A DNA stretch of 47,663 nucleotides from a bacterium (lineage in GTDB: Bacteria; Patescibacteriota; Minisyncoccia; 1-14-0-10-42-19). Both the position numbers and the translations under genes were made by a program. The notes beneath the pieces were generated by a model. It was given only the letters and a program-made list of their open reading frames with translations, had not been told where the DNA came from and searched no databases. The first letter of the stretch is position 1. Each line of letters starts with the position of its first letter. Of the stretch, positions 24,920 through 35,729 are shown piece after piece. The stretch covers positions 1 through 47,663 of the forward strand of contig JAUYHD010000032.1 in NCBI GenBank assembly GCA_030690215.1, given 5' to 3'.

Positions 24920-25882
24920 ATGTCAGTAAAAGTGTATGCGGCCCAGACGATTGGGCTTGAAGGGCAAATAATAGATGTTGAATTGGATGTATCCCAAGGT
25001 CTTCGCTCATTTACGATTGTCGGGCTTGCCGACAAGGCGGTGGATGAAGCCCGCCATAGGATTTCATACGCAATTGCGAATGTCGGGTATTACCCGCCCC
25101 ATAAGAAAAATCAAAAAGTAATTGCTTCCTTGGCGCCCGCGGATATGAAAAAAGAAGGGCCGTATTTTGATTTAGCAATAGCGGTCGCGTATCTTTTGGG
25201 TTCAAAACAAATTAGCTGCAGCCCGGAACATACGCTTTTTTTGGGAGAACTCGCGCTTGACGGGGTGCTTCGTCCGGTAAAGGGGGTGCTGCCTCTTATC
25301 AAAAAAGCAAAAGAAAAAGGATTTACGTCAGTTATTCTCCCAAAAGGAAACGGAGAGGAGGCATCTTTTGTAAAGGATATGTTTGTGTACGAAGCGCCCA
25401 CGCTTGCTGACGTTGCTGACCATCTTGCCGGAGATGTGCTGATGCCGCCATTCCAGAAAAAAGAATTTGAAGCAGAAATTCAAAATTACGATTTTGACAT
25501 GAGGGATGTTCGCGGGCAAGATGTCGCAAAGCGCGCTCTTTTAATTGCTGCTGCAGGTTCTCACAATATAGGCATGTCGGGTCCTCCCGGGACCGGCAAA
25601 ACACTTCTTGCTCGTGCCTTGCCGAGCATATTGCCTCCCCTTTCTTTTGATGAGGCGTTTGAAGTGACAACTATTCATAGCGTTGCGGGGGCGTTAAAAA
25701 ATTCTTTTCTAAGCGAGCGGCCATTTCGAAGTCCGCATCATACATCTTCGTATGTCTCCTTAGTTGGCGGCGGCGCGTTTCCAAAACCGGGAGAGATTAC
25801 ATTAGCCCACAGGGGCGTTCTATTTAGGATGGTCGGTTTGCAAAGATGCCCTTTCCGTAAGGCAGAGCAACACTTTTTATGA
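24920..25882 (+). pseudogene. comM: ComM/YifB Mg-chelatase-like ATPase, 5' part (native codons to 25825/25827, then 18 non-native residues from the inserted element)
   Basis: MSVKVYAAQTIGLEGQIIDVELD..., GPPGTGKTLLARALPSILPPLSFDEAFEVTTIHS, FRSPHHTSSYVSLVGGGAFPKPGEITLAHRGVLF, then switches to unrelated sequence. Confidence 0.95.
25825..25845. repeat. left attachment junction
   Basis: comM..CTATTT-AG-GAT-GGTCGGTTTGCAAAG. Confidence 0.85.
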
Positions 25883-26059
25883 AAATTTGCCTGTTTCGGT
25901 ATTCTTTTTTGAAGCTCGACTTGCTCCTGAAGTTTTTGAATGTCTCATCCATAGGCCACTTTTACTGGCCTCGCACCAACAAAGTTTCTGCTTCTATAAA
26001 AAGACTCGCTCGCGTGCGTACGCGAAATTATAGCGGTCTATTTGCAGTGCTGACCCAAA

Positions 26060-26085
26060 AAGAAAACCCCGACTGTGCGTACGGG
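26060..26085 (-). terminator. intrinsic terminator downstream of the DUF1508-like gene
   Basis: minus strand: ACCCCG TACGCACAGT CGGGGT TTTCTTTTT. Confidence 0.7.
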
Positions 26086-26116
26086 GTCTTCCCAACATCG
26101 CGATGTTTGCTATACT

Positions 26117-26293
26117 TTAGTTGATTTCCACTATGGTGGCGTAGCTAGCCCAATCTTTCACCTTTTGGGCTGACTGCTTCGCGGAATAGCGTGTTGTGTA
26201 TCCCTCACTGACGGCGACAATCTCGCCGTTGCTTGCCTTTAGCCGCCAGCGGTGTTGTCCTGCCTTGTCAGTGTAAACTTCGAGTTTAGACAT
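26117..26293 (-). CDS. 58-aa DUF1508/YegP-like protein
   Basis: MSKLEVYTDKAGQHRWRLKASNGEIVAVSEGYTTRYSAKQSAQKVKDWASYATIVEIN*; missed by ORF track. Confidence 0.8.
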   Translation of the reverse strand: MSKLEVYTDKAGQHRWRLKASNGEIVAVSEGYTTRYSAKQSAQKVKDWASYATIVEIN

Positions 26294-26354
26294 CGTAGTA
26301 TTACGTTAAGCTGATAATCCAAAGTGGTTGCGCTTAAGGGTTTCTGTCACTACC

Positions 26355-26393
26355 CTTACCACAATGTTAAGTACAGTTTAACGGATAGGTAAG
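26355..26393. promoter_or_regulatory. nested-dyad operator candidate upstream of XRE/ImmA genes
   Basis: CTTACC-5-GTTAA-7-TTAAC-5-GGTAAG; followed by TTGTCA-17-TATGAT promoter. Confidence 0.65.
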
Positions 26394-26416
26394 CCCTTGT
26401 CAACACAATTCGGTAA

Positions 26417-26779
26417 GTGTATGATACCAGTATGATGAATGAAGAAAACAAATATCAATTTATTGGAAAAAAGATAAGGGAAGCTCGGGAAGCATCCGGA
26501 CTTTCTCAAAGGGAACTTGCCGACAAGCTCGGCTTCGAATCCTCAACAGCTGTTTCCTATATGGAGTCAGGAGAGAGAAAGGTATCTGTGGTAGACCTTG
26601 AAAAAATATCTCAACTGCTCGACAAGGATATCCGCTTTTTTATTGGTCAGGAAGGCGAACAACTTAATGTTCGTGTTGCCTTGCGTGCCGAAACGGGACT
26701 GGACAAGAAAGACCAGGACGCGATTCTGCATATTATAGAAATGGCAAAGAAGCACACTAAAGACAATGGAACCAAATGA
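26417..26779 (+). CDS. XRE-family HTH repressor (ImmR-like by context)
   Basis: IREAREASGLSQRELADKLGFESSTAVSYMESGERKVSVVDLEKIS. Confidence 0.85.
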   Translation: MYDTSMMNEENKYQFIGKKIREAREASGLSQRELADKLGFESSTAVSYMESGERKVSVVDLEKISQLLDKDIRFFIGQEGEQLNVRVALRAETGLDKKDQDAILHIIEMAKKHTKDNGTK

Positions 26780-27290
26780 AAAAGCACGGATAGGAACAGC
26801 ACGAAACCTCGCGCGGAGTCTTATTAAGAAATGCAAGATAAAAGAAGCTCCCGTATCTTTGCGTACAATCATCAACCTTCTCAAGACAACACACGACCTT
26901 GGCGTATACCCTGCCCCAAACTTCACAGACAGACTTTCTGGCATTCTCGTAACTATTGAAGATGAGTCTGCTAATACTAGACGAAATGAGATTCACTATA
27001 ATGAGAATCATAGTTGGCACAGAAAAAGATTTTCTATTGCCCACGAAATAGGCCATCTGCTTTTTAATACCACTTGCTTGGATTCGGCAGTGTCGTCGTA
27101 CGATTCAAAATCAATAAACGAAACAGAGGCAAATCAGTTTGCGTCTGAACTGCTTATGCCACTAGGTCTGCTAAAGAGCGATTTCAAAAAAGGAGTTGAT
27201 GTAAAGTCACTTGCGTGGAAGTATATCGTTAGCCAAGAAGCTATGGGTTGGAAGTTGGCAAGCAACACATCTTTACTTACACGAATATGA
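26766..27290 (+). CDS. ImmA/IrrE-family metallopeptidase
   Basis: FSIAHEIGHLLFNT (HExxH), NETEANQFASELLMP; overlaps the XRE gene. Confidence 0.88.
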   Translation: MEPNEKARIGTARNLARSLIKKCKIKEAPVSLRTIINLLKTTHDLGVYPAPNFTDRLSGILVTIEDESANTRRNEIHYNENHSWHRKRFSIAHEIGHLLFNTTCLDSAVSSYDSKSINETEANQFASELLMPLGLLKSDFKKGVDVKSLAWKYIVSQEAMGWKLASNTSLLTRI

Positions 27291-27508
27291 GGTATGATTT
27301 TGAAAAAAGAGATGCTGTAAGTTGGATTCTGAATGGAATTTTTGTTTTTTTGTGGTTGTTCGTATGGAAACCAATCAGTATTCTGCTCTCTTTTTTGCAT
27401 AAGTTAACTGTTGATGTTGCAAAAAGTGTATATGGGAAAATCGTTGCAATACTAGGTGCTACGATACTCTCCTTACTCCTCATTTATTTCTCAGGACTTT
27501 TTAACTAG
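27287..27508 (+). CDS. small two-TM membrane protein
   Basis: Start MRYDFEKRDAV via ATGA overlap with ImmA gene; two hydrophobic segments. Confidence 0.5.
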   Translation: MRYDFEKRDAVSWILNGIFVFLWLFVWKPISILLSFLHKLTVDVAKSVYGKIVAILGATILSLLLIYFSGLFN

Positions 27509-27558
27509 AGGTAAAAGTTTTTATAGACCGACCTCGGCAGTGGTTGAATCACAAAAAA

Positions 27559-27771
27559 CTAGAAGTTCAGTTCGTTGTTCTCGAACATCCGCACAAACTC
27601 TTTGAGGTTCTTTTCTTCAATGTAGTATCGGCTACCAGACCGCTTCCCCGTCTTTATCGGCTTGAGAATGTGCTGGTAGTAGTCAATATACTTACGAATC
27701 GTCTTGTAGCTCGTGTGCCAGTAAATGAGATTTTGCTTCTGAATCTGCCCTAACGAATAAACCTTTTTCAT
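27559..27771 (-). CDS. excisionase/MerR-like HTH protein, candidate recombination directionality factor
   Basis: MKKVYSLGQIQKQNLIYWHTSYKTIRKYIDYYQHILKPIKTGKRSGSRYYIEEKNLKEFVRMF; about 75 bp downstream of integrase gene, same strand. Confidence 0.55.
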   Translation of the reverse strand: MKKVYSLGQIQKQNLIYWHTSYKTIRKYIDYYQHILKPIKTGKRSGSRYYIEEKNLKEFVRMFENNELNF

Positions 27772-27847
27772 AGTTCTAAAGTGAGACGAGTGAACCCACA
27801 ATCCTTTCTCGTCCTAGTAATCAAGCTAGTAATGGTATCTATCATCT

Positions 27848-29614
27848 TCATACGAGAGTTTTTGGAACATACATGAGAGGGTTAGAGCGAAGTATTTGCG
27901 CTCGCCTCTCTGCTTCCGTCACGGTCTTGATGTTTAGCACTAACGGGAAGTAGTCATTTTCTTGCGGAACTTTCGTACCAAGTTTCACTGTCTGTACTTT
28001 CGTCGAACTTGGGAAACGGAATACCACCGATGCAAAGTCCTCACGAGCATGCAAGGTAATACGCTCGATGAATAGCCGAATGATTTCCGACTTTCCCTCG
28101 TATGAAACGGAATCTAAGTGCTCTTTGATTTGCACATACGCTTGTTGGATAGCAACTTCACGCTCCGCCTTTTCTTTCTTGGTGAGCAGGGATTGTCGCA
28201 ATCGGGACGCCTCATCGTTCAGTTTCTTTTCTTCTATTCCGTTTCCGTTGCTATGCTCTCGGTATCGAGGTTGGTCGATTTTGCCGTTGATGTAGAGTTC
28301 GTCCACCCGTTTCTGCTTCTCGTGTACCGAGGAAAGCTCCACGACTATTTGCTCAAGCCTCTCTTTGATGTTCTGTGGGTTTTCTTCCCGATATATGTAT
28401 TTCTCCAAAGGGTCAAACATATTCTTTGGATTCTTAAGGATTTCTTTCAAGCACTCCCAAACTGGCTCCAATCGATTTTCGGAGTATTGAGGACACCAAT
28501 CGCATCGTTTCGATACGCCTATCACTTTATCGTTTCGGTAAGTGCCGTGATAGTACCTGCCACCAGCAGTCGGCCACCTCTTTGTAGAGGGTTGGAATCC
28601 GCCAAACATTTTGTATCCACATTTTCCGCAATATATGACTTTGGAGTACAGGTAGCTTCTTTTTTGATTTCGTTTTGAGAACTCGCGGTTTTTGAGAAGT
28701 TGCTGTTTCGCGGCCTCGAACATTTCTTGAGTAATGATTGCAGGACATTCCATTTTTATCCATTCCTCTTTTGGTCTCAGCATTCGCTTGTCTGTGATGC
28801 TCGTGAGGTTGTTGAAAGGACGCTTATATTTTCTGTAGTAGAAAATTCCTGTGTAGGTTTCGTTGGTCAATATTCGGCCAATGGTTCTGCGATGCCAGTA
28901 GTTTAATGTCTGACGCTTTTTATATTTCGCATTATATGGTGGTGGAACTTTCATTTGGTTCATTCGTTTTTCGACTTCCCGCAAAGGAAGTTTTTCGTCG
29001 ACGACCCAACTAAAAAGTTTCTTTACGATTTTTGCTTGCTCTGGAATCACTGCGAGTTTCTTGCTCGGCTTCTCAATAAAGTATCCGTAAGTTGGAACGC
29101 CACAAACGAATTTTCCCTCTCGTGCCGCTTTAATTTTCCCCGACATAGTTCTTTCCCTTGTAGTTTCTCGTTCCGCTTCCGCAATACTTGCAAGAAGTCT
29201 GAGCAGAAGACGACCTGAAATTTCATTTGTGTTGAACGACTCGGTTGCTGACTGGAAAGAAACATCGGACGCTTTTAGAACTTCAAACGCATTGAGCAGA
29301 TGCCGTGTGCTTCTGAAGAACCTGTCCAGTCTGTAAACGAGCACGACATCGAACTTCTTGTTTTCTGCATCTTCAAAAAGCCTAGCTAACGCTGGACGAT
29401 GTTTGATGTCGAGACTGCCAGAATACCCCTCGTCCTTGTAGATGTACTCGTCTTCAAGGATGTATTCCTCGGCCTGCGACTTGCAGAACGCTTTGAGCTT
29501 TTCTTCCTGAACAGCCAAGCCGTTTCCCGACTGGACTTGCTCATCGGTTGAAACGCGAATGTAAATCGCGGCTCGAAGTTTTTTTGCGTTTGTTTGTAAG
29601 TTTTCAGTTGTCAT
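27848..29614 (-). CDS. large serine recombinase (integrase)
   Basis: RAAIYIRVSTDEQ..., DVVLVYRLDRFFRS, RLLLRLLASIAEAERETTRERT, recombinase domain and zinc ribbon YCGKCGYKM..CDWC. Confidence 0.95.
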   Translation of the reverse strand: MTTENLQTNAKKLRAAIYIRVSTDEQVQSGNGLAVQEEKLKAFCKSQAEEYILEDEYIYKDEGYSGSLDIKHRPALARLFEDAENKKFDVVLVYRLDRFFRSTRHLLNAFEVLKASDVSFQSATESFNTNEISGRLLLRLLASIAEAERETTRERTMSGKIKAAREGKFVCGVPTYGYFIEKPSKKLAVIPEQAKIVKKLFSWVVDEKLPLREVEKRMNQMKVPPPYNAKYKKRQTLNYWHRRTIGRILTNETYTGIFYYRKYKRPFNNLTSITDKRMLRPKEEWIKMECPAIITQEMFEAAKQQLLKNREFSKRNQKRSYLYSKVIYCGKCGYKMFGGFQPSTKRWPTAGGRYYHGTYRNDKVIGVSKRCDWCPQYSENRLEPVWECLKEILKNPKNMFDPLEKYIYREENPQNIKERLEQIVVELSSVHEKQKRVDELYINGKIDQPRYREHSNGNGIEEKKLNDEASRLRQSLLTKKEKAEREVAIQQAYVQIKEHLDSVSYEGKSEIIRLFIERITLHAREDFASVVFRFPSSTKVQTVKLGTKVPQENDYFPLVLNIKTVTEAERRAQILRSNPLMYVPKTLV

Positions 29615-29780
29615 GCTTTTTGTTTTTGCAGAGCATCAGAAGTTTTTCTGGTGATGCTGATTCGATTTCTCGTGATTTCATTTCGACCAACTCACTGACG
29701 AGTTCTTTTCTGCTGAGTGACTCGATTTCCATAATCAGGTCTGCCAGCAAATAATCTCTAACGCTTTCTATGTCATTCAT
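29604..29780 (-). CDS. 58-aa ORF overlapping the integrase start
   Basis: MNDIESVRDYLLADLIMEIESLSRKELVSELVEMKSREIESASPEKLLMLCKNKKHDN*. Confidence 0.5.
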   Translation of the reverse strand: MNDIESVRDYLLADLIMEIESLSRKELVSELVEMKSREIESASPEKLLMLCKNKKHDN

Positions 29781-29909
29781 GATAGTTTTTGGAAACTCTT
29801 ACCCGCCATAATGTGGCTTAAAATAAGGGTATTCCTAGTACTATCGTTATAGGTGCGTCAGCAAAGTAAAGGTAATTCCATGTATTGCCATGTTAACAAC
29901 TTGGTTTCG

Positions 29910-30683
29910 TTAAGACGCGCTTACATCAGATTTTTCCTTAGAGAGTGTCCTTTCAGGGCTGTGGGGGCCAAGAGCAAGGAATCTGGAGATTCTTTCCTCT
30001 GAATCGAAAAACCAAGCAAGAGTGCTCGTTTCTGTAATCGGCTTCCAGAATTCGTTTTCTGATGCATTTCTGATTGCGATATAGAGCTGAAAAGAATCGT
30101 ATTCGTTCAATCTGTCACGGATTTTCTCTCTGGCCTTGCGAGTCATCGGCAACTTCTTTCCAGAGAGAATGAATTGAGAATGAGCTTCATATAATCTCTT
30201 TATCACTCTTTCTATCTCTGTATCTGTAGTGTGTGTACTCACGACACTAGGGACAGGTGTACTGTCGTCACCAGTCGCTGGGGACATCAGTACACTGCTC
30301 TTGTTTCCTTTTGTCCCTTGTTCCTGGTGTATTGATGTCACTAGAGAGTATTGGTTCGTCCGACTACTTTTGACTGATGTGATATATCCCTTTTCTTCCA
30401 GAGAGCGTAACGCCCGAATGATTCCTTTCCTACTGAGTCCTGTCCCGCGATGAATCTTATGCACGCCGTGCTCGAGTTGAGTGAGACTGACCCTGTCTGA
30501 CGACCGACCAAAACCCCACATGTGTCGTAGCAGGCAATCAAGAACCTTTTGTTCCGCACCCGACAAATCATGCCAGTACATGCAGACTATGTTCGGATAG
30601 CACCAGAAGTTGCCCGGTGCTCGTTTTGAAGGGAAGCCAGGAAATCTCTGAGCAGGACTATTTGTTTCTGTTGTTTTCTTCAT
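29910..30683 (-). CDS. winged-helix replication-initiation-like protein
   Basis: LSGAEQKVLDCLLRHMWGFGRSSDRVSLTQLEHG...GLSRKGIIRALRSLEEKGYITSVKSSRTNQYSLV resembles phage/plasmid replication wHTH proteins. Confidence 0.5.
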   Translation of the reverse strand: MKKTTETNSPAQRFPGFPSKRAPGNFWCYPNIVCMYWHDLSGAEQKVLDCLLRHMWGFGRSSDRVSLTQLEHGVHKIHRGTGLSRKGIIRALRSLEEKGYITSVKSSRTNQYSLVTSIHQEQGTKGNKSSVLMSPATGDDSTPVPSVVSTHTTDTEIERVIKRLYEAHSQFILSGKKLPMTRKAREKIRDRLNEYDSFQLYIAIRNASENEFWKPITETSTLAWFFDSEERISRFLALGPHSPERTLSKEKSDVSAS

Positions 30684-30966
30684 CTTCGAATTTCTTAAAG
30701 AACCTCGCTATTTGCTTTGTGGAGCTTCTTACATCAGGGAAGTGTTCAAACACTACCTTTACCGCTATAGCGTTCCCTTTATCGTTGCTGAACCACCTCA
30801 CCCACTTTCTTGGATGCAAGTCTGTGATTGGTTCATCGAGTTCTTTGCTGACAGTGCACGCGACATCGTAAAGCGCATCCCGAACTAACTGTTCAGATGT
30901 CGCCTCTCTGCTGTCCTTGCGGTCGCCTGCTGGGTTCATAATCATTACCGATTTAGCCCCGTTCAT
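30658..30966 (-). CDS. hypothetical protein
   Basis: 102-aa ORF, overlaps neighbours in an apparent operon. Confidence 0.5.
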   Translation of the reverse strand: MNGAKSVMIMNPAGDRKDSREATSEQLVRDALYDVACTVSKELDEPITDLHPRKWVRWFSNDKGNAIAVKVVFEHFPDVRSSTKQIARFFKKFEDEENNRNK

Positions 30967-31301
30967 TTCCTTGGAGTTTTAGCTTTTAATTTCGGACTCT
31001 GCTTCTTTTTGTTCTTGAACCATGACGGTGTCGGCGGGGGGCAGACATCCCATGTCGTTTGGTAGTTTTTCCCACCCACTCGTGCCCATATACGGAGACC
31101 GTGTGCTGTTTTTGGATTCAGGTCAATCATTACTCCTGCGCCCTCTAACCACGGCTTTGCGTTGTAGTGATACAGTCCCCGATTACACATCTTTGCGAAC
31201 AGTTTTGTCGCAATCTCGGAGAGCATCCAATGGAGATACCTGTAGTGTACTGGGAGCATCTTTTTGAATTCGTCGTATTCCAGTTCTTTTGCTTTTAACA
31301 T
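30963..31301 (-). CDS. hypothetical protein
   Basis: MLKAKELEYDEFKKMLPVHYRYLHWMLSEIATKLFAKMCNRGLYHYNAKPWLEG..., 4-bp overlap with next ORF. Confidence 0.5.
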   Translation of the reverse strand: MLKAKELEYDEFKKMLPVHYRYLHWMLSEIATKLFAKMCNRGLYHYNAKPWLEGAGVMIDLNPKTAHGLRIWARVGGKNYQTTWDVCPPPTPSWFKNKKKQSPKLKAKTPRK

Positions 31302-31440
31302 TTTTGTTTTTAGCGTTATTACTGATAATCGGCTTTTCGTTCAGCAGGATATTGAACAGCGAAAACCAAGCGTGCGAGTTTGCAAGCTCAGTTTCGACCT
31401 TTTTCGCTGTGTTAGGAGTATCCATTTTGGTAAACGAAAA

Positions 31441-31557
31441 ACCGCTGACGCGATACGCCAGCGGGTCTTTATGTTTCCAGTCATCTAAAAGGATGGAAAC
31501 TAAACCCTGCGCGTAACGCAGATTTAGTCGTTCCACCTCTTAGGAATATTCTCCTAG
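31441..31557 (-). promoter_or_regulatory. multi-hairpin leader upstream of the rep-like operon
   Basis: Hairpins 31500-31527, 31473-31500 and terminator-like 31442-31464 followed on the minus strand by TTTTT; TAGGA-ATATTC-TCCTA dyad at 31541-31556. Confidence 0.5.
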
Positions 31558-31827
31558 AGAGAAGCTTCTGACGACATTAATCGCCAAAACTCTAACACCT
31601 TACCGACAAGTATAGCAGATTTTTAGTAAAAATGCAATTGGTATTATCCACCTACTCATAACAAAACATGCTTCTCGTGTGAATGTGGGGCACGACAGAG
31701 TGGTTGTGATGCCTACTCCCCCCTAAGCGTGATGCCCTGAGTGAGTGCAGGGCACATTTCTTTATTAAAATGTCTCCAATACAAAAACGAGTGAGATGCT
31801 CGCGGAAGCTATTGCAAGTACGACAGA

Positions 31828-32007
31828 TTATTTCTCTTGTTCTTTGTTCTTGTCGGAATCTGGAAACTCTACATTGCCATACACAGCACGATAGATGCTT
31901 ACGAGATAGTCAGCTTTCCGTTCAGCTTCTTTGTCGGAAAGCTTTTCGCCAAAGTATTTCTCGTAGAGAGTCTTGAATTTTCGCAAAGACTTTTTTGTTA
32001 ACGCCAT
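31828..32007 (-). CDS. 59-aa hypothetical protein
   Basis: MALTKKSLRKFKTLYEKYFGEKLSDKEAERKADYLVSIYRAVYGNVEFPDSDKNKEQEK*. Confidence 0.55.
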   Translation of the reverse strand: MALTKKSLRKFKTLYEKYFGEKLSDKEAERKADYLVSIYRAVYGNVEFPDSDKNKEQEK

Positions 32008-32016
32008 GTTTCTATA

Positions 32017-32529
32017 TTACTGCGCCAAAGACCGCCCGTATTCCAGTTGTTGGTCAATCTCGCTGGTTAATCTGTCGATTTCTGCCTGTGTAGCTTGTTG
32101 CTTCTCTAGATTCTTTTGTGCTTGAACAGGGTCATACACCGCCTTTCCCCCGATAGCCATGCGCTCAAGAGTCCAAGTTTCGCCCGACAGTCTCATCAGA
32201 ACAGTCCAGTCGCTTCGTATCATAGCTCCAAAGCTGTTTTGCGAATCAACATACGAATCAACTTTATAGAGTCCATTTCCGTCAGCACTCGTGTCGTAAG
32301 GAAGCACAGGAAACTTTGCAGTCGAGGGTGCTTTCAATCCCTGTTTGACGAACTCCTGTGCCTGTATATGAAGCTCGATTTCGTCTGGCGTGTAGACAGT
32401 TGGAGTTTGAGAAGATGAACTACCACCAGAGAAGAAAAACATGTAAGAAAAAGTAGCAACTATAACCACAAAAAGCATTGTGGCGATTACATTTCCGACT
32501 TTTGATTCAGGAGGTCCTCGTTTTTCCAT
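32017..32529 (-). CDS. membrane-anchored hypothetical protein
   Basis: N-terminal TM helix; AQEFVKQGLKAPSTAKFPVLPYDTSADGNGLYKVDSYVDSQNSFGA. Confidence 0.6.
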   Translation of the reverse strand: MEKRGPPESKVGNVIATMLFVVIVATFSYMFFFSGGSSSSQTPTVYTPDEIELHIQAQEFVKQGLKAPSTAKFPVLPYDTSADGNGLYKVDSYVDSQNSFGAMIRSDWTVLMRLSGETWTLERMAIGGKAVYDPVQAQKNLEKQQATQAEIDRLTSEIDQQLEYGRSLAQ

Positions 32530-32566
32530 ACATGTAATTTGTTGTCCTTACTTTCATTATATACCA

Positions 32567-32599
32567 ATATAACAAGTAGTTATATTCCATATAGTTATA
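32567..32599. promoter_or_regulatory. operator candidate for the small HTH regulator
   Basis: ATATAAC-AAGTA-GTTATAT perfect dyad plus extra GTTATA half-site 15 bp downstream. Confidence 0.55.
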
Positions 32600-32612
32600 G
32601 AACATAGATGGT

Positions 32613-32834
32613 ATGAAGAAAACCATCTTTGATGATGACTATAAAGTTTTTGTTAAGCGACTAAAGAAAGCTCGTAGCGAATCGGGCTTAACCCAGATTC
32701 AAGCAGCAAAAAAACTTGGTTCTACTCAAGCTTATATTTCTAAAGTCGAAGACGGACAGTTGAGGGTTGATGTCACTCAACTCAAAAGATTTGCAAAAGT
32801 GTACGGCAAAAGTGTTAACTATTTCTTGAAATAG
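32613..32834 (+). CDS. XRE-family HTH protein, candidate restriction-modification controller (C) protein
   Basis: FVKRLKKARSESGLTQIQAAKKLGSTQAYISKVEDGQLRVDVTQLKRFAKVYGKSVNYFLK; next to R-M genes. Confidence 0.65.
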   Translation: MKKTIFDDDYKVFVKRLKKARSESGLTQIQAAKKLGSTQAYISKVEDGQLRVDVTQLKRFAKVYGKSVNYFLK

Positions 32835-32841
32835 GAACTGT

Positions 32842-33600
32842 CTAGTCTCCGTTCTTGGGAGTAACGAATTCAGATATTTTATCTTTCTTGAATTTAGAAA
32901 GATACCGATGAATCACAAGATTCATATATGAGTTTTTCAGGCGAAAGGCACGAATCTCAGCGGGGGCATCGCTATAGGGTTGTTTGGTTTTTGATTTTTT
33001 GTCATTAGGATCCCTGAATGTGCCGCCGTGTTTTGGGCATAAGGTTAGAGACTGATGTTGGTGCTGGTGGATATGGTGTGCTTCACCCTTTCGAATCATT
33101 TGCAAAATGGCCTGATAGTCCGGTTCAAGCTCTGCGAGAATAGCGGGGGTCATTTCCCAAAGAAAAACATACTTAATCACATACGCAGACCGCAAGCCGT
33201 CATCGTGTACATACCAAACAAATAAAATCTTACGGTTCTTTTTATACAAGGAGGACTGAGAGAGATTTTCATTTTTACATTCCTGTATGTAGTTGATTAT
33301 GTTCAACGACAACGGTTCTTTTACCCGCAGTTTTCCATCCCTCCCCTTCTTTAGGGGACTCGTCTTTAGTTCGACACCAAGAGTAGCAAGGTCTGGTTCG
33401 GCACTGTTATTTTTACCAAGCCCAAAATATCCTTCTTCGACTACATAACCAACACTTGCTTTTGAGAGTACCCTGGAGGTCTTGTCACTTTTGCTGACCC
33501 AGTCAGCTATTTCGGACAGCGTCTTACCTTCAAGGTCTTGCCTTGCTCTTTCCTCAAGTTCCTTGGCCGTTTTAATTTTGCTTAAATCGAGTATTGCCAC
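32842..33600 (-). CDS. Sau3AI/MutH-like type II restriction endonuclease (predicted GATC-specific)
   Basis: KASVGYVVEEGYFGLGKNNSAEPDLATLGVELKTSPLK resembles Sau3AI/MutH family; paired with a C5 methyltransferase; GATC depletion in element. Confidence 0.75.
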   Translation of the reverse strand: MAILDLSKIKTAKELEERARQDLEGKTLSEIADWVSKSDKTSRVLSKASVGYVVEEGYFGLGKNNSAEPDLATLGVELKTSPLKKGRDGKLRVKEPLSLNIINYIQECKNENLSQSSLYKKNRKILFVWYVHDDGLRSAYVIKYVFLWEMTPAILAELEPDYQAILQMIRKGEAHHIHQHQHQSLTLCPKHGGTFRDPNDKKSKTKQPYSDAPAEIRAFRLKNSYMNLVIHRYLSKFKKDKISEFVTPKNGD

Positions 33601-33700
33601 AGTACCCCGATTATAGCTGAAAAGTTGATCCTTTTCACTTTTTGTGTTCGAATGCCGTCAAACCTTGATCGAAATAGGCCATAATGTTACGATTTAAGTA

Positions 33701-34945
33701 ATGAAAAAAAATGCTTCCAAAACAATCAAAGTGGTCGAACTCTTCGCTGGCGTTGGAGGATTTCGTATTGGACTAGAGAGAGCTGGGGCGTTCAAAACTG
33801 TCTGGAGTAATCAATGGGAGCCAGCAACAAAGAAACAACATGCTTCCGAAACATACATTGCTCGTTTTGGTTCAGATGGACACTCGAATGAGGATATTGC
33901 AAAAGTAAGAGTATCTGACATACCTGACCATGAACTCTTGGTGGGCGGTTTCCCATGTCAGGATTATTCGGTCGCGAGAACATTAAGTCAGGCAACAGGC
34001 CTGCAAGGGAAAAAGGGTGTGTTGTGGTGGGAGATTCACCGTATTTTGAAAGAAAAAGGTACCAAAGCGCCTAAGTACTTGATACTTGAAAATGTGGACA
34101 GATTGCTCAAATCACCTGCCTCTCAACGAGGTCGTGATTTCGCAATAATGATTGCTTCGTTGAATGACCTCGGATACATAGTCGAGTGGCGTATCGTTAA
34201 TGCCGCAGAATATGGTATGCCACAGAGACGACGACGTATTTTTATAATGGGTTATAGAAAAGGTACTACTTTGTATAAGAAGATTAAGAAACAAAAGAAT
34301 CCTGGAGACTGGATTGCAGGGTCAGGAGTAATAACGAAAGCATTCCCAGTTGAAGAATCTATAGACTTTTCTCATTTTGAGGTCAAGGGAGATTTGGCAG
34401 AAATAAGTTCAGAGTTTAACAAAAAGAACCCAACGATTAGTCCATTCAAGACAGGAGGGATTTCAATCGAAAGAAAGGTCGTTACGGCGGAAGTGAAACC
34501 GAACTACAGAGGTAAAAGAATAACTCTTGGCGACATTTTGATTGACGAAAAAGATGTTCCAGACGACTTCTTTGTCAAAAAAAGTCACCTCCCAGATTGG
34601 AAGTATTTGAAAGGAGCAAAAAAGGAAGAGCGTAATGGGAGAGATGGTTTTAAGTTTTTTTATGTGGAGGGACCAATGGTCTTCCCAGATTCACTTGATA
34701 AGCCCTCACGGACGATTATCACAGCAGAGGGTGGGAATACGCCATCTCGATTTAAGCATGTCATTAAGACATCTTCAGGAAAGTTTCGGAGATTGACTCC
34801 CATCGAACTTGAGAGACTTTGTATGTTCCCAGACAATCACACAGTAGGACAACCAGATGTGAAGAGAGCTTTCTTTATGGGAAATGCTCTTGTAGTTGGT
34901 GTCATTGAACAACTCGGTAAGTCTCTTTTGAAAGAAGTGGATTGA
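33701..34945 (+). CDS. DNA (cytosine-5-)-methyltransferase
   Basis: VVELFAGVGGFRIGLE, VGGFPCQDYSVA, LILENVDRLLKSP, AAEYGMPQRRRRIFIMGY, GNALVVGVIEQLG. Confidence 0.95.
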   Translation: MKKNASKTIKVVELFAGVGGFRIGLERAGAFKTVWSNQWEPATKKQHASETYIARFGSDGHSNEDIAKVRVSDIPDHELLVGGFPCQDYSVARTLSQATGLQGKKGVLWWEIHRILKEKGTKAPKYLILENVDRLLKSPASQRGRDFAIMIASLNDLGYIVEWRIVNAAEYGMPQRRRRIFIMGYRKGTTLYKKIKKQKNPGDWIAGSGVITKAFPVEESIDFSHFEVKGDLAEISSEFNKKNPTISPFKTGGISIERKVVTAEVKPNYRGKRITLGDILIDEKDVPDDFFVKKSHLPDWKYLKGAKKEERNGRDGFKFFYVEGPMVFPDSLDKPSRTIITAEGGNTPSRFKHVIKTSSGKFRRLTPIELERLCMFPDNHTVGQPDVKRAFFMGNALVVGVIEQLGKSLLKEVD

Positions 34946-35087
34946 GAGACTTCATCTATATTTGCTGTCCTGTTTTTTCGAGAAGAGTGTAGGCCTACCT
35001 AAAAAGGCCAATCACTACCTATTTTTTTTACCCTTATTTATGGGACAGCTATCAATTTGTTCGTACCGCTAAAACGTACTTACCTCT

Positions 35088-35108
35088 CTTTCCAAGCCGA
35101 CCTCTAGT
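35088..35108. repeat. right attachment junction
   Basis: CTTTCCAAGCCGACC-TCT-AG-TGATGAATTC(comM). Confidence 0.85.
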
Positions 35109-35729
35109 GATGAATTCCCGGAATTTGACCGGCGTATTATAGAAGCATTGCGCCAGCCATTGGAAGACGGGTATATTACGGTTGCGCGAGCGCGAGGCGT
35201 GATGCAATTCCCCGCGCGTTTTATGCTCGTTGCCGCTATGAATCCGTGCCCCTGCGGATATTTTGGTTCAAAAATAAAAGAATGTGTCTGCCCCGTATCT
35301 TCCCTTTTTCGTTACCAACGAAAAATTTCGGGGCCTATCGTAGATCGTATTGATGTCTGGATTGATGTGGGCGAAATCCCTCATGAAAAATTAGATGAAA
35401 AAGACCCAAAAGCAGTTTCTTCTGCAGATATGAGAGAACAAGTAATTGCGGCGCGTACGACGCAGATGGATCGATTTAAACATAATAAGAAAAAAATATT
35501 TACAAATAGCGAAATGAATGTGCGTGATCTTGATACGTATGTTCCGCTTTCGTCGGGCGTAAAAGCCGTTCTTGTGCAGGCGGCAGGGCGTCTTCGCCTT
35601 TCTGCGCGCGCCTATCATCGCGTTATCAAAATTGCGCGTACGATCGCGGATCTCGCGGGGAGCAACGACATCCAGAAAAATCATGTTATGGAAGCGCTTC
35701 AGTATCGGCCGAAAGAAAAATCTCTCTAA
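35106..35729 (+). pseudogene. comM: ComM/YifB 3' part, in frame with the 5' part after excision
   Basis: (S)DEFPEFDRRIIEALRQPLEDGYITVARARGVMQFPARFMLVAAMNPCPCGYFG... Confidence 0.95.

What the first reader, a model, noticed from the sequence alone, without database searches (positions are those of the whole stretch)
33601..33700. Two of the three element GATC sites lie in the divergent R-M promoter region, 40 bp apart
The 100-bp intergenic between endonuclease (minus) and methyltransferase (plus) holds TTGATC at 33625 and TTGATC at 33665. The second forms a plausible -35 for the MTase (TTGATC-17-TACGAT). The first falls between a TATAAT (minus strand, 33610-33615) and its upstream region for the nuclease. 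Retention of GATC only here, despite avoidance elsewhere, suggests methylation- or MTase-binding-dependent autoregulation of the timing of M and R expression.
Basis: partly seen in the sequence, partly recalled or inferred. Interest (0 to 1): 0.7.

Follow-up and report, generated by a model that had tools for sequence, protein, structure and literature searches.

The report
Methylase promoter contains its own target
A DNA-methylating enzyme of a mobile restriction-modification system has its own recognition sequence, GATC, built into the promoter that drives it, an arrangement kept at the same spacing in distant relatives, so the enzyme probably turns its own gene down as it methylates the cell.

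Summary
Observation confirmed. The 100-bp gap between a Sau3AI/MutH-family endonuclease gene (minus) and an M.Sau3AI-type C5-methyltransferase gene (plus) holds TTGATC at 33625 and 33665, two of only three GATCs in a 9.3-kb comM-inserted element (about 32 expected). The strongest support is comparative. Viral contig L101, with a 62%-identical endonuclease in the same divergent layout, has both TTGATCs exactly 40 bp apart, although the rest of the spacer is only 44% identical. Across the methyltransferase family, GATC sits in the -35 box exactly 17 bp before a TANNNT -10 box: 11/11 CPR-type loci, 10/18 Bacillota plasmid loci, 4/26 viral contigs; with TTGATC, 3/1254 control genes. It is essentially absent from Bacteroidota relatives. 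Best reading: GATC methylation (or methylase occupancy) of the -35 box lowers methylase transcription, as in CfrBI and LlaDII. The second GATC lies in the predicted endonuclease promoter spacer, at the same position in both systems; its role is less certain. There are no expression or methylation data. The mechanism is a known kind, called 'rarely used'; its conservation across this family was not found in the papers I could search.

The parts
33665..33670 (+). TTGATC: predicted -35 box of the methyltransferase promoter, containing the methylase target GATC (33667-33670)
   Evidence: position conserved in L101 and family-wide
33688..33693 (+). TACGAT: predicted -10 box of the methyltransferase promoter, 17 bp after the -35 box and 7 nt before the ATG (predicted leaderless mRNA)
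33625..33630 (-). second TTGATC (GATC 33627-33630), in the predicted spacer of the endonuclease promoter, 27 nt from the endonuclease start; same place in L101
33610..33638 (-). predicted endonuclease promoter GTGAAA-N17-TATAAT
   Evidence: 10/12 matches; similar layout TTGAGT-N17-TATTCT in L101
32842..33600 (-). endonuclease, 252 aa, MutH/Sau3AI family, half size (catalytic half only)
   Evidence: Pfam MutH 1.4e-20; PDB 4pxg Sau3AI 1e-26; D70, E77, K79 kept in relatives
33701..34945 (+). C5-cytosine methyltransferase of the M.Sau3AI family, 414 aa, no N-terminal HTH domain
   Evidence: Pfam DNA_methylase 6e-66; relatives beside Sau3AI- or BglII/BstYI-family endonucleases
33009..33012 (.). third GATC of the element, inside the endonuclease gene (GGATCC)
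25829..35111 (.). mobile element with large serine recombinase inserted in comM; GATC-poor
   Evidence: ends read by eye

Best explanation
The methyltransferase promoter is built on its own target site. On newly arrived, unmethylated DNA the TTGATC -35 box is open and methylase is made at once. As methylase accumulates it methylates the GATC in the -35 box; the 5-methyl groups lie in the major groove of a hexamer that sigma reads, RNA polymerase binds less well, and methylase transcription settles to a maintenance level. Replication or loss of methylase re-exposes the site, so this is negative feedback on the methylation state of the cell. In the divergent loci (window and L101) a second GATC lies just downstream of the predicted endonuclease -35 box, in the spacer; it most likely couples endonuclease expression to the same signal. 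Shown: the sequences, their position-specific conservation, the enzyme families, and GATC depletion elsewhere in the element. Inferred: promoter activity, GATC specificity, methylation sensitivity, the sign of regulation, and any timing of the endonuclease.
For: GATC in the -35 box exactly 17 bp before TANNNT: 11/11 CPR-type loci, 10/18 Bacillota, 4/26 viral contigs, other distances mostly 0-2 genes and at most 5. The TTGATC form occurs in practically no shuffles and in 3/1254 upstream regions of other genes. Among the 33 TTGNNN-17-TANNNT sites upstream of 51 non-Bacteroidota methylase genes, 24 are TTGATC and every other hexamer occurs once. 25 motif-bearing proteins form 16 groups below 70% identity, trait needs at least 5 changes on the tree. 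L101 keeps both sites at 40 bp, 12/12 bases in the hexamers against 36/81 elsewhere. Loci fetched after the motif was defined: L236, L238, L239 and L246 have it. Precedents: CfrBI, LlaDII, AhdI.
Against: No expression, start-site or methylation data. GATC specificity is inferred from family. Bacteroidota relatives (0/71 with a 17-bp spacer), L038, L245, the haloarchaeal locus and three phage records lack the motif, so it is not essential to the family. L236, L238 and L239 are relatives of loci already seen. The endonuclease-side site rests on one comparison (window with L101).
Confidence: 0.6

Rival explanations
1. Occupancy rather than methylation: the methyltransferase protein, bound at the promoter GATCs through its target-recognition domain, is itself the repressor, and paired sites raise local occupancy.
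For: Many promoters have two or three GATCs (40 bp apart in window and L101; 10 bp in L021, L023, L025, L072, L004; 6 bp in L017, L236).
Against: Pair spacing varies and several motif-bearing promoters have one GATC. A C5-methylase leaves its site after methylating it (general knowledge), and there is no HTH extension.
Confidence: 0.2
2. The endonuclease, not the methylase, reads the promoter GATCs: unmethylated sites are bound or cut by it, silencing or breaking the locus when methylation is lost.
For: GATC is the presumed target of both enzymes.
Against: The motif is kept where no Sau3AI-family endonuclease is adjacent: L012 and L020, with BglII/BstYI-type enzymes, and phage contigs L109, L111, L117.
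Confidence: 0.06
3. No regulation: TTGATC is simply an acceptable -35 box, and the GATCs are chance or inherited.
For: TTGATC matches TTGACA at 4 of 6 positions; no functional data exist.
Against: Other TTGNNN boxes should then be as common, but none occurs more than once against 24; GATC is otherwise avoided in this element; the spacer around the sites has diverged.
Confidence: 0.09
4. A separate regulator controls the locus, such as the HTH protein at 32613-32834 acting as a C protein.
For: An HTH_3 ORF lies next to the endonuclease gene; L008 has an HTH gene before its methylase.
Against: The ORF is downstream of and convergent with the endonuclease, unlike C genes, and L101, which shares the promoter layout, has a recombinase there instead.
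Confidence: 0.05

Closest known systems
CfrBI R-M system (promoter-methylation control)
   Same: Divergent genes; recognition site inside the promoter region; methylation lowers methylase and favours endonuclease transcription (described in PMC12707154 section 10)
   Different: CfrBI has one site in overlapping promoters; here two GATCs, one per predicted promoter, 40 bp apart, in an unrelated enzyme family; no functional data here
LlaDII and AhdI methylase autoregulation
   Same: Methylation of the methylase promoter affects the methylase gene itself (PMC12707154 section 10)
   Different: Other specificities and gene orders; AhdI also has a C protein
Sau3AI R-M system
   Same: MutH-fold endonuclease and C5-methylase family; presumed GATC target
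   Different: Endonuclease here is half size, without the C-terminal half; regulation of Sau3AI itself not found in the papers searched
SsoII/Ecl18kI-type methylase autorepressors
   Same: Methylase autoregulation in an R-M system, divergent genes
   Different: Those bind a separate operator through an N-terminal HTH domain, absent here

Membership tests
R-M systems controlled by promoter methylation (CfrBI kind) | Recognition site of the system inside the methylase promoter | tested here: met
   TTGATC at 33665 as -35 box, conserved geometry
R-M systems controlled by promoter methylation (CfrBI kind) | Methylation changes transcription of the methylase gene | not testable with these tools
   needs reporter or in vitro transcription
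Sau3AI-type R-M system | MutH/Sau3AI catalytic domain with intact D-E-K residues | tested here: met
   Pfam and PDB matches; D70, E77, K79 invariant in close relatives
Sau3AI-type R-M system | Full-length two-half endonuclease (NCBIfam equivalog cut-off) | tested here: not met
   173.5 bits against a cut-off of 300; matches only profile positions 4-232 of 475
Sau3AI-type R-M system | Methylase of the M.Sau3AI family with GATC specificity | tested here: inconclusive
   39-50% identity to plasmid methylases, several beside Sau3AI-family enzymes (and others); specificity not measured
HTH-methylase autorepressors (SsoII/Ecl18kI) | N-terminal HTH extension on the methylase | tested here: not met
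   only 12 residues before motif I; Pfam finds DNA_methylase only
C-protein-controlled R-M | C gene upstream of and co-oriented with the endonuclease gene | tested here: not met
   only nearby HTH ORF (32613-32834) is downstream and convergent, and absent from L101

The most novel reading that the evidence does not exclude
Self-site control is the usual regulation of a widespread methyltransferase family: a GATC embedded in the -35 box with a fixed 17-bp spacer makes each such M.Sau3AI-type promoter a direct sensor of methylation, in small-genome CPR bacteria (there often on leaderless promoters), Bacillota plasmids and phages, with a two-site version that also sets the divergent endonuclease promoter.
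Probability: 0.45. Interest if true: 0.7.

Novelty: new member of a known kind. Interest (0 to 1): 0.55.

Why it matters
How R-M systems make methylase before endonuclease on entering a new cell is a standing question. A 2025 review calls promoter methylation a logical solution that is 'apparently rarely used' (PMC12707154). The conserved TTGATC-17-TANNNT element suggests it is common in one widespread family. It gives a sequence rule that can be tested directly with plasmid-borne Bacillota systems in laboratory strains, and looked for in other R-M families.

Tried and rejected
Half-size endonuclease relatives: two viral-contig scans and four genome searches, with L038 from the methylase scan, gave only L101 and L038 as close relatives. 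Genome-wide leaderless test: a crude scan of 498 host ORFs showed only a weak excess of -10-like boxes at -12 (5.0% against 1.7% background), so I do not claim leaderless genes are general in this host. Bacteroidota relatives: no GATC enrichment upstream (17 against 27 expected), so the feature is not universal. C-protein and HTH-methylase control: rejected on gene order and domain content. Three phage-database methylases lacked the motif. A viral scan with a Macrococcus methylase found nothing. The primary CfrBI, LlaDII and AhdI papers were not held, so their details come from reviews. Searches for papers on Sau3AI methylase regulation found none.

Full report
Observation. The window carries a divergent pair: a 252-aa Sau3AI/MutH-family endonuclease on the minus strand (GTG start at 33600) and a 414-aa C5-methyltransferase on the plus strand (ATG at 33701), separated by 100 bp. 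TTGATC occurs at 33625 and 33665. The methyltransferase side reads TTGATC-N17-TACGAT. The endonuclease side reads GTGAAA-N17-TATAAT with 10/12 consensus matches, the best promoter-like site in the region. The sequence details in the finding are right.

Context. comM is split by an element of about 9.3 kb (about 25829-35111) with a large serine recombinase (ends read by eye). The element has 3 GATCs where a Markov model expects 32, while 658 kb of the same genome has 0.68 of expectation and no 9.3-kb host window has fewer than 11. ACGT (0.11) and CCGG (0.22) are also strongly avoided in the element, so the avoidance probably reflects several restriction environments, not this system alone. If the three sites were placed at random, two or more in this 100 bp has probability 3.5e-4. 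The genome is 1.02 Mb; that it belongs to the CPR/Patescibacteria is my inference from genome size and from the CPR-titled contigs among the closest methylase relatives.

Enzymes. The endonuclease matches only the N-terminal, catalytic half of Sau3AI (PDB 4pxg, E 1e-26) and falls below the full-length NCBIfam cut-off. The other hits in the phylum are full size, about 450-470 aa. Close half-size relatives are rare: L101, an IMG/VR contig, at 62% identity, and L038, a contig filed under Nanoarchaeota, at 57%. The methyltransferase is 39-50% identical to a group of plasmid enzymes, several of which sit beside Sau3AI-family or BglII/BstYI-family endonucleases; other C5 enzymes fall to about 29%. 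GATC specificity is therefore well founded but inferred.

Independent copy of the arrangement. L101 has the same divergent half-size endonuclease and methyltransferase and two TTGATC sites exactly 40 bp apart. Aligned without gaps from the endonuclease start, 36 of 81 bases outside the two hexamers agree (shuffled alignments average 28%), but 12 of 12 inside them agree. In both loci the endonuclease-side GATC occupies positions 3-6 of the predicted 17-bp spacer and lies 27 nt from the start codon: GTGAAA-AGGATCAACTTTTCAGC-TATAAT-9-GTG in the window and TTGAGT-AAGATCAATATATTTAG-TATTCT-9-ATG in L101.

Family-wide test. I collected 121 distinct methyltransferase loci of the family, later a few more. 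In the 130 bp upstream of the start, TTGATC-N17-TANNNT is present in 11/11 CPR-type loci (three with CPR titles, six in the window's own genome or phylum, and L101 and L072, grouped by sequence), 6/10 Bacillota plasmids, 4/26 viral contigs and 1/4 Campylobacterota. It is absent from 71 Bacteroidota and other loci (one has an 18-bp spacer). Dinucleotide shuffles give practically none, and other genes in the same loci 3 of 1254. Among all TTGNNN-17-TANNNT sites in the 51 non-Bacteroidota upstream regions, TTGATC occurs 24 times and nine other hexamers once each. Without assuming the TTG, the distance from GATC to TANNNT peaks at exactly 17 bp (11/11, 10/18, 4/26), other distances being mostly 0-2 genes and never more than 5.

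Caveats on the statistics. The motif was recognised on part of these data, so loci fetched afterwards are the fairer test. Bacillota: 3 of 8 exact plus one TGGATC-17-TACAAT, though the three exact ones are relatives of earlier loci. CPR: 1 of 2 (L246 yes, L245 no). Phage records: 0 of 3. The 25 motif-bearing proteins form 16 groups below 70% identity, and the protein tree needs at least 5 changes of the trait, 7 by parsimony. At this divergence a neutral promoter would not be expected to stay alike.

Mechanism. A methylase whose -35 box is its own target is set up for negative feedback: strong expression on naive DNA, reduced when the site is methylated or occupied. I think methylation is the more likely signal. 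The enzyme lacks the N-terminal HTH of SsoII-type autorepressors, and precedents exist: CfrBI with divergent genes, LlaDII and AhdI (PMC12707154 section 10; PMC3874152). In GATm5C the methyls fall on the last C of TTGATC and on the C opposite its G, both in the major groove that sigma region 4 reads (general knowledge). Pairs of GATC with variable spacing (6, 10, 14, 34 or 40 bp) leave room for an occupancy component. The endonuclease-side site is conserved in the one close divergent relative available, so its role, probably coupling the two promoters, is less secure. In 7 of 11 CPR-type loci, including this one, the -10 box lies close enough to the ATG to predict a leaderless or nearly leaderless methylase mRNA; a crude genome-wide test did not show this to be general in the host.

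Known or new. Control by methylation of the methylase promoter is a known kind, described in a 2025 review as apparently rarely used. What I did not find in the papers I could search is its apparent conservation across the M.Sau3AI family and its presence in CPR-type genomes; most subscription literature was out of reach. I therefore file the locus as a new member of a known kind, with the family-wide rule as the interesting part. Nothing here demonstrates regulation; it defines sharp, cheap tests.

Noticed in passing
window 25829-35111: A large serine recombinase element splits comM (halves at 24920-25828 and from about 35112); AG at both ends could be the 2-bp crossover core. It also carries an HTH plus IrrE/M78-peptidase pair (26417-27290).
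   Followed up: partly
window 25829-35111: The element avoids ACGT (obs/exp 0.11) and CCGG (0.22) nearly as strongly as GATC (0.09), unlike the host, suggesting a history in hosts with several restriction systems.
   Followed up: partly
window 32842-33600; L101:3136-3897; L038:2061-2837: Half-size Sau3AI-like endonuclease (252 aa) without the C-terminal half; rare, while related genomes carry the full-size form of about 450-470 aa.
   Followed up: partly
L023, L025, L072, L004, L021, L246 upstream of the methylase: Tandem or solitary CPR-type loci have two GATCs one helical turn (10 bp) apart around the methylase -35 box, instead of the 40-bp pair.
   Followed up: partly
L249:4391-5158 (+): In genome G378 the methylase closest to that of L101 has a divergent 250-aa neighbour with no Pfam match, a candidate unrelated endonuclease; the methylase -35 GATC is kept.
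   Followed up: partly
L234 and L235 (Exiguobacterium, Paraclostridium plasmids): Here GATC directly abuts a TGTTCA -35-like box (GATCTGTTCA-N17-TATAAT) instead of lying inside it, a possible variant of the same control.
   Followed up: no
L101:1804-3081: The L101 R-M pair also sits beside a serine recombinase gene (425 aa), so both divergent half-size systems travel with recombinases.
   Followed up: no
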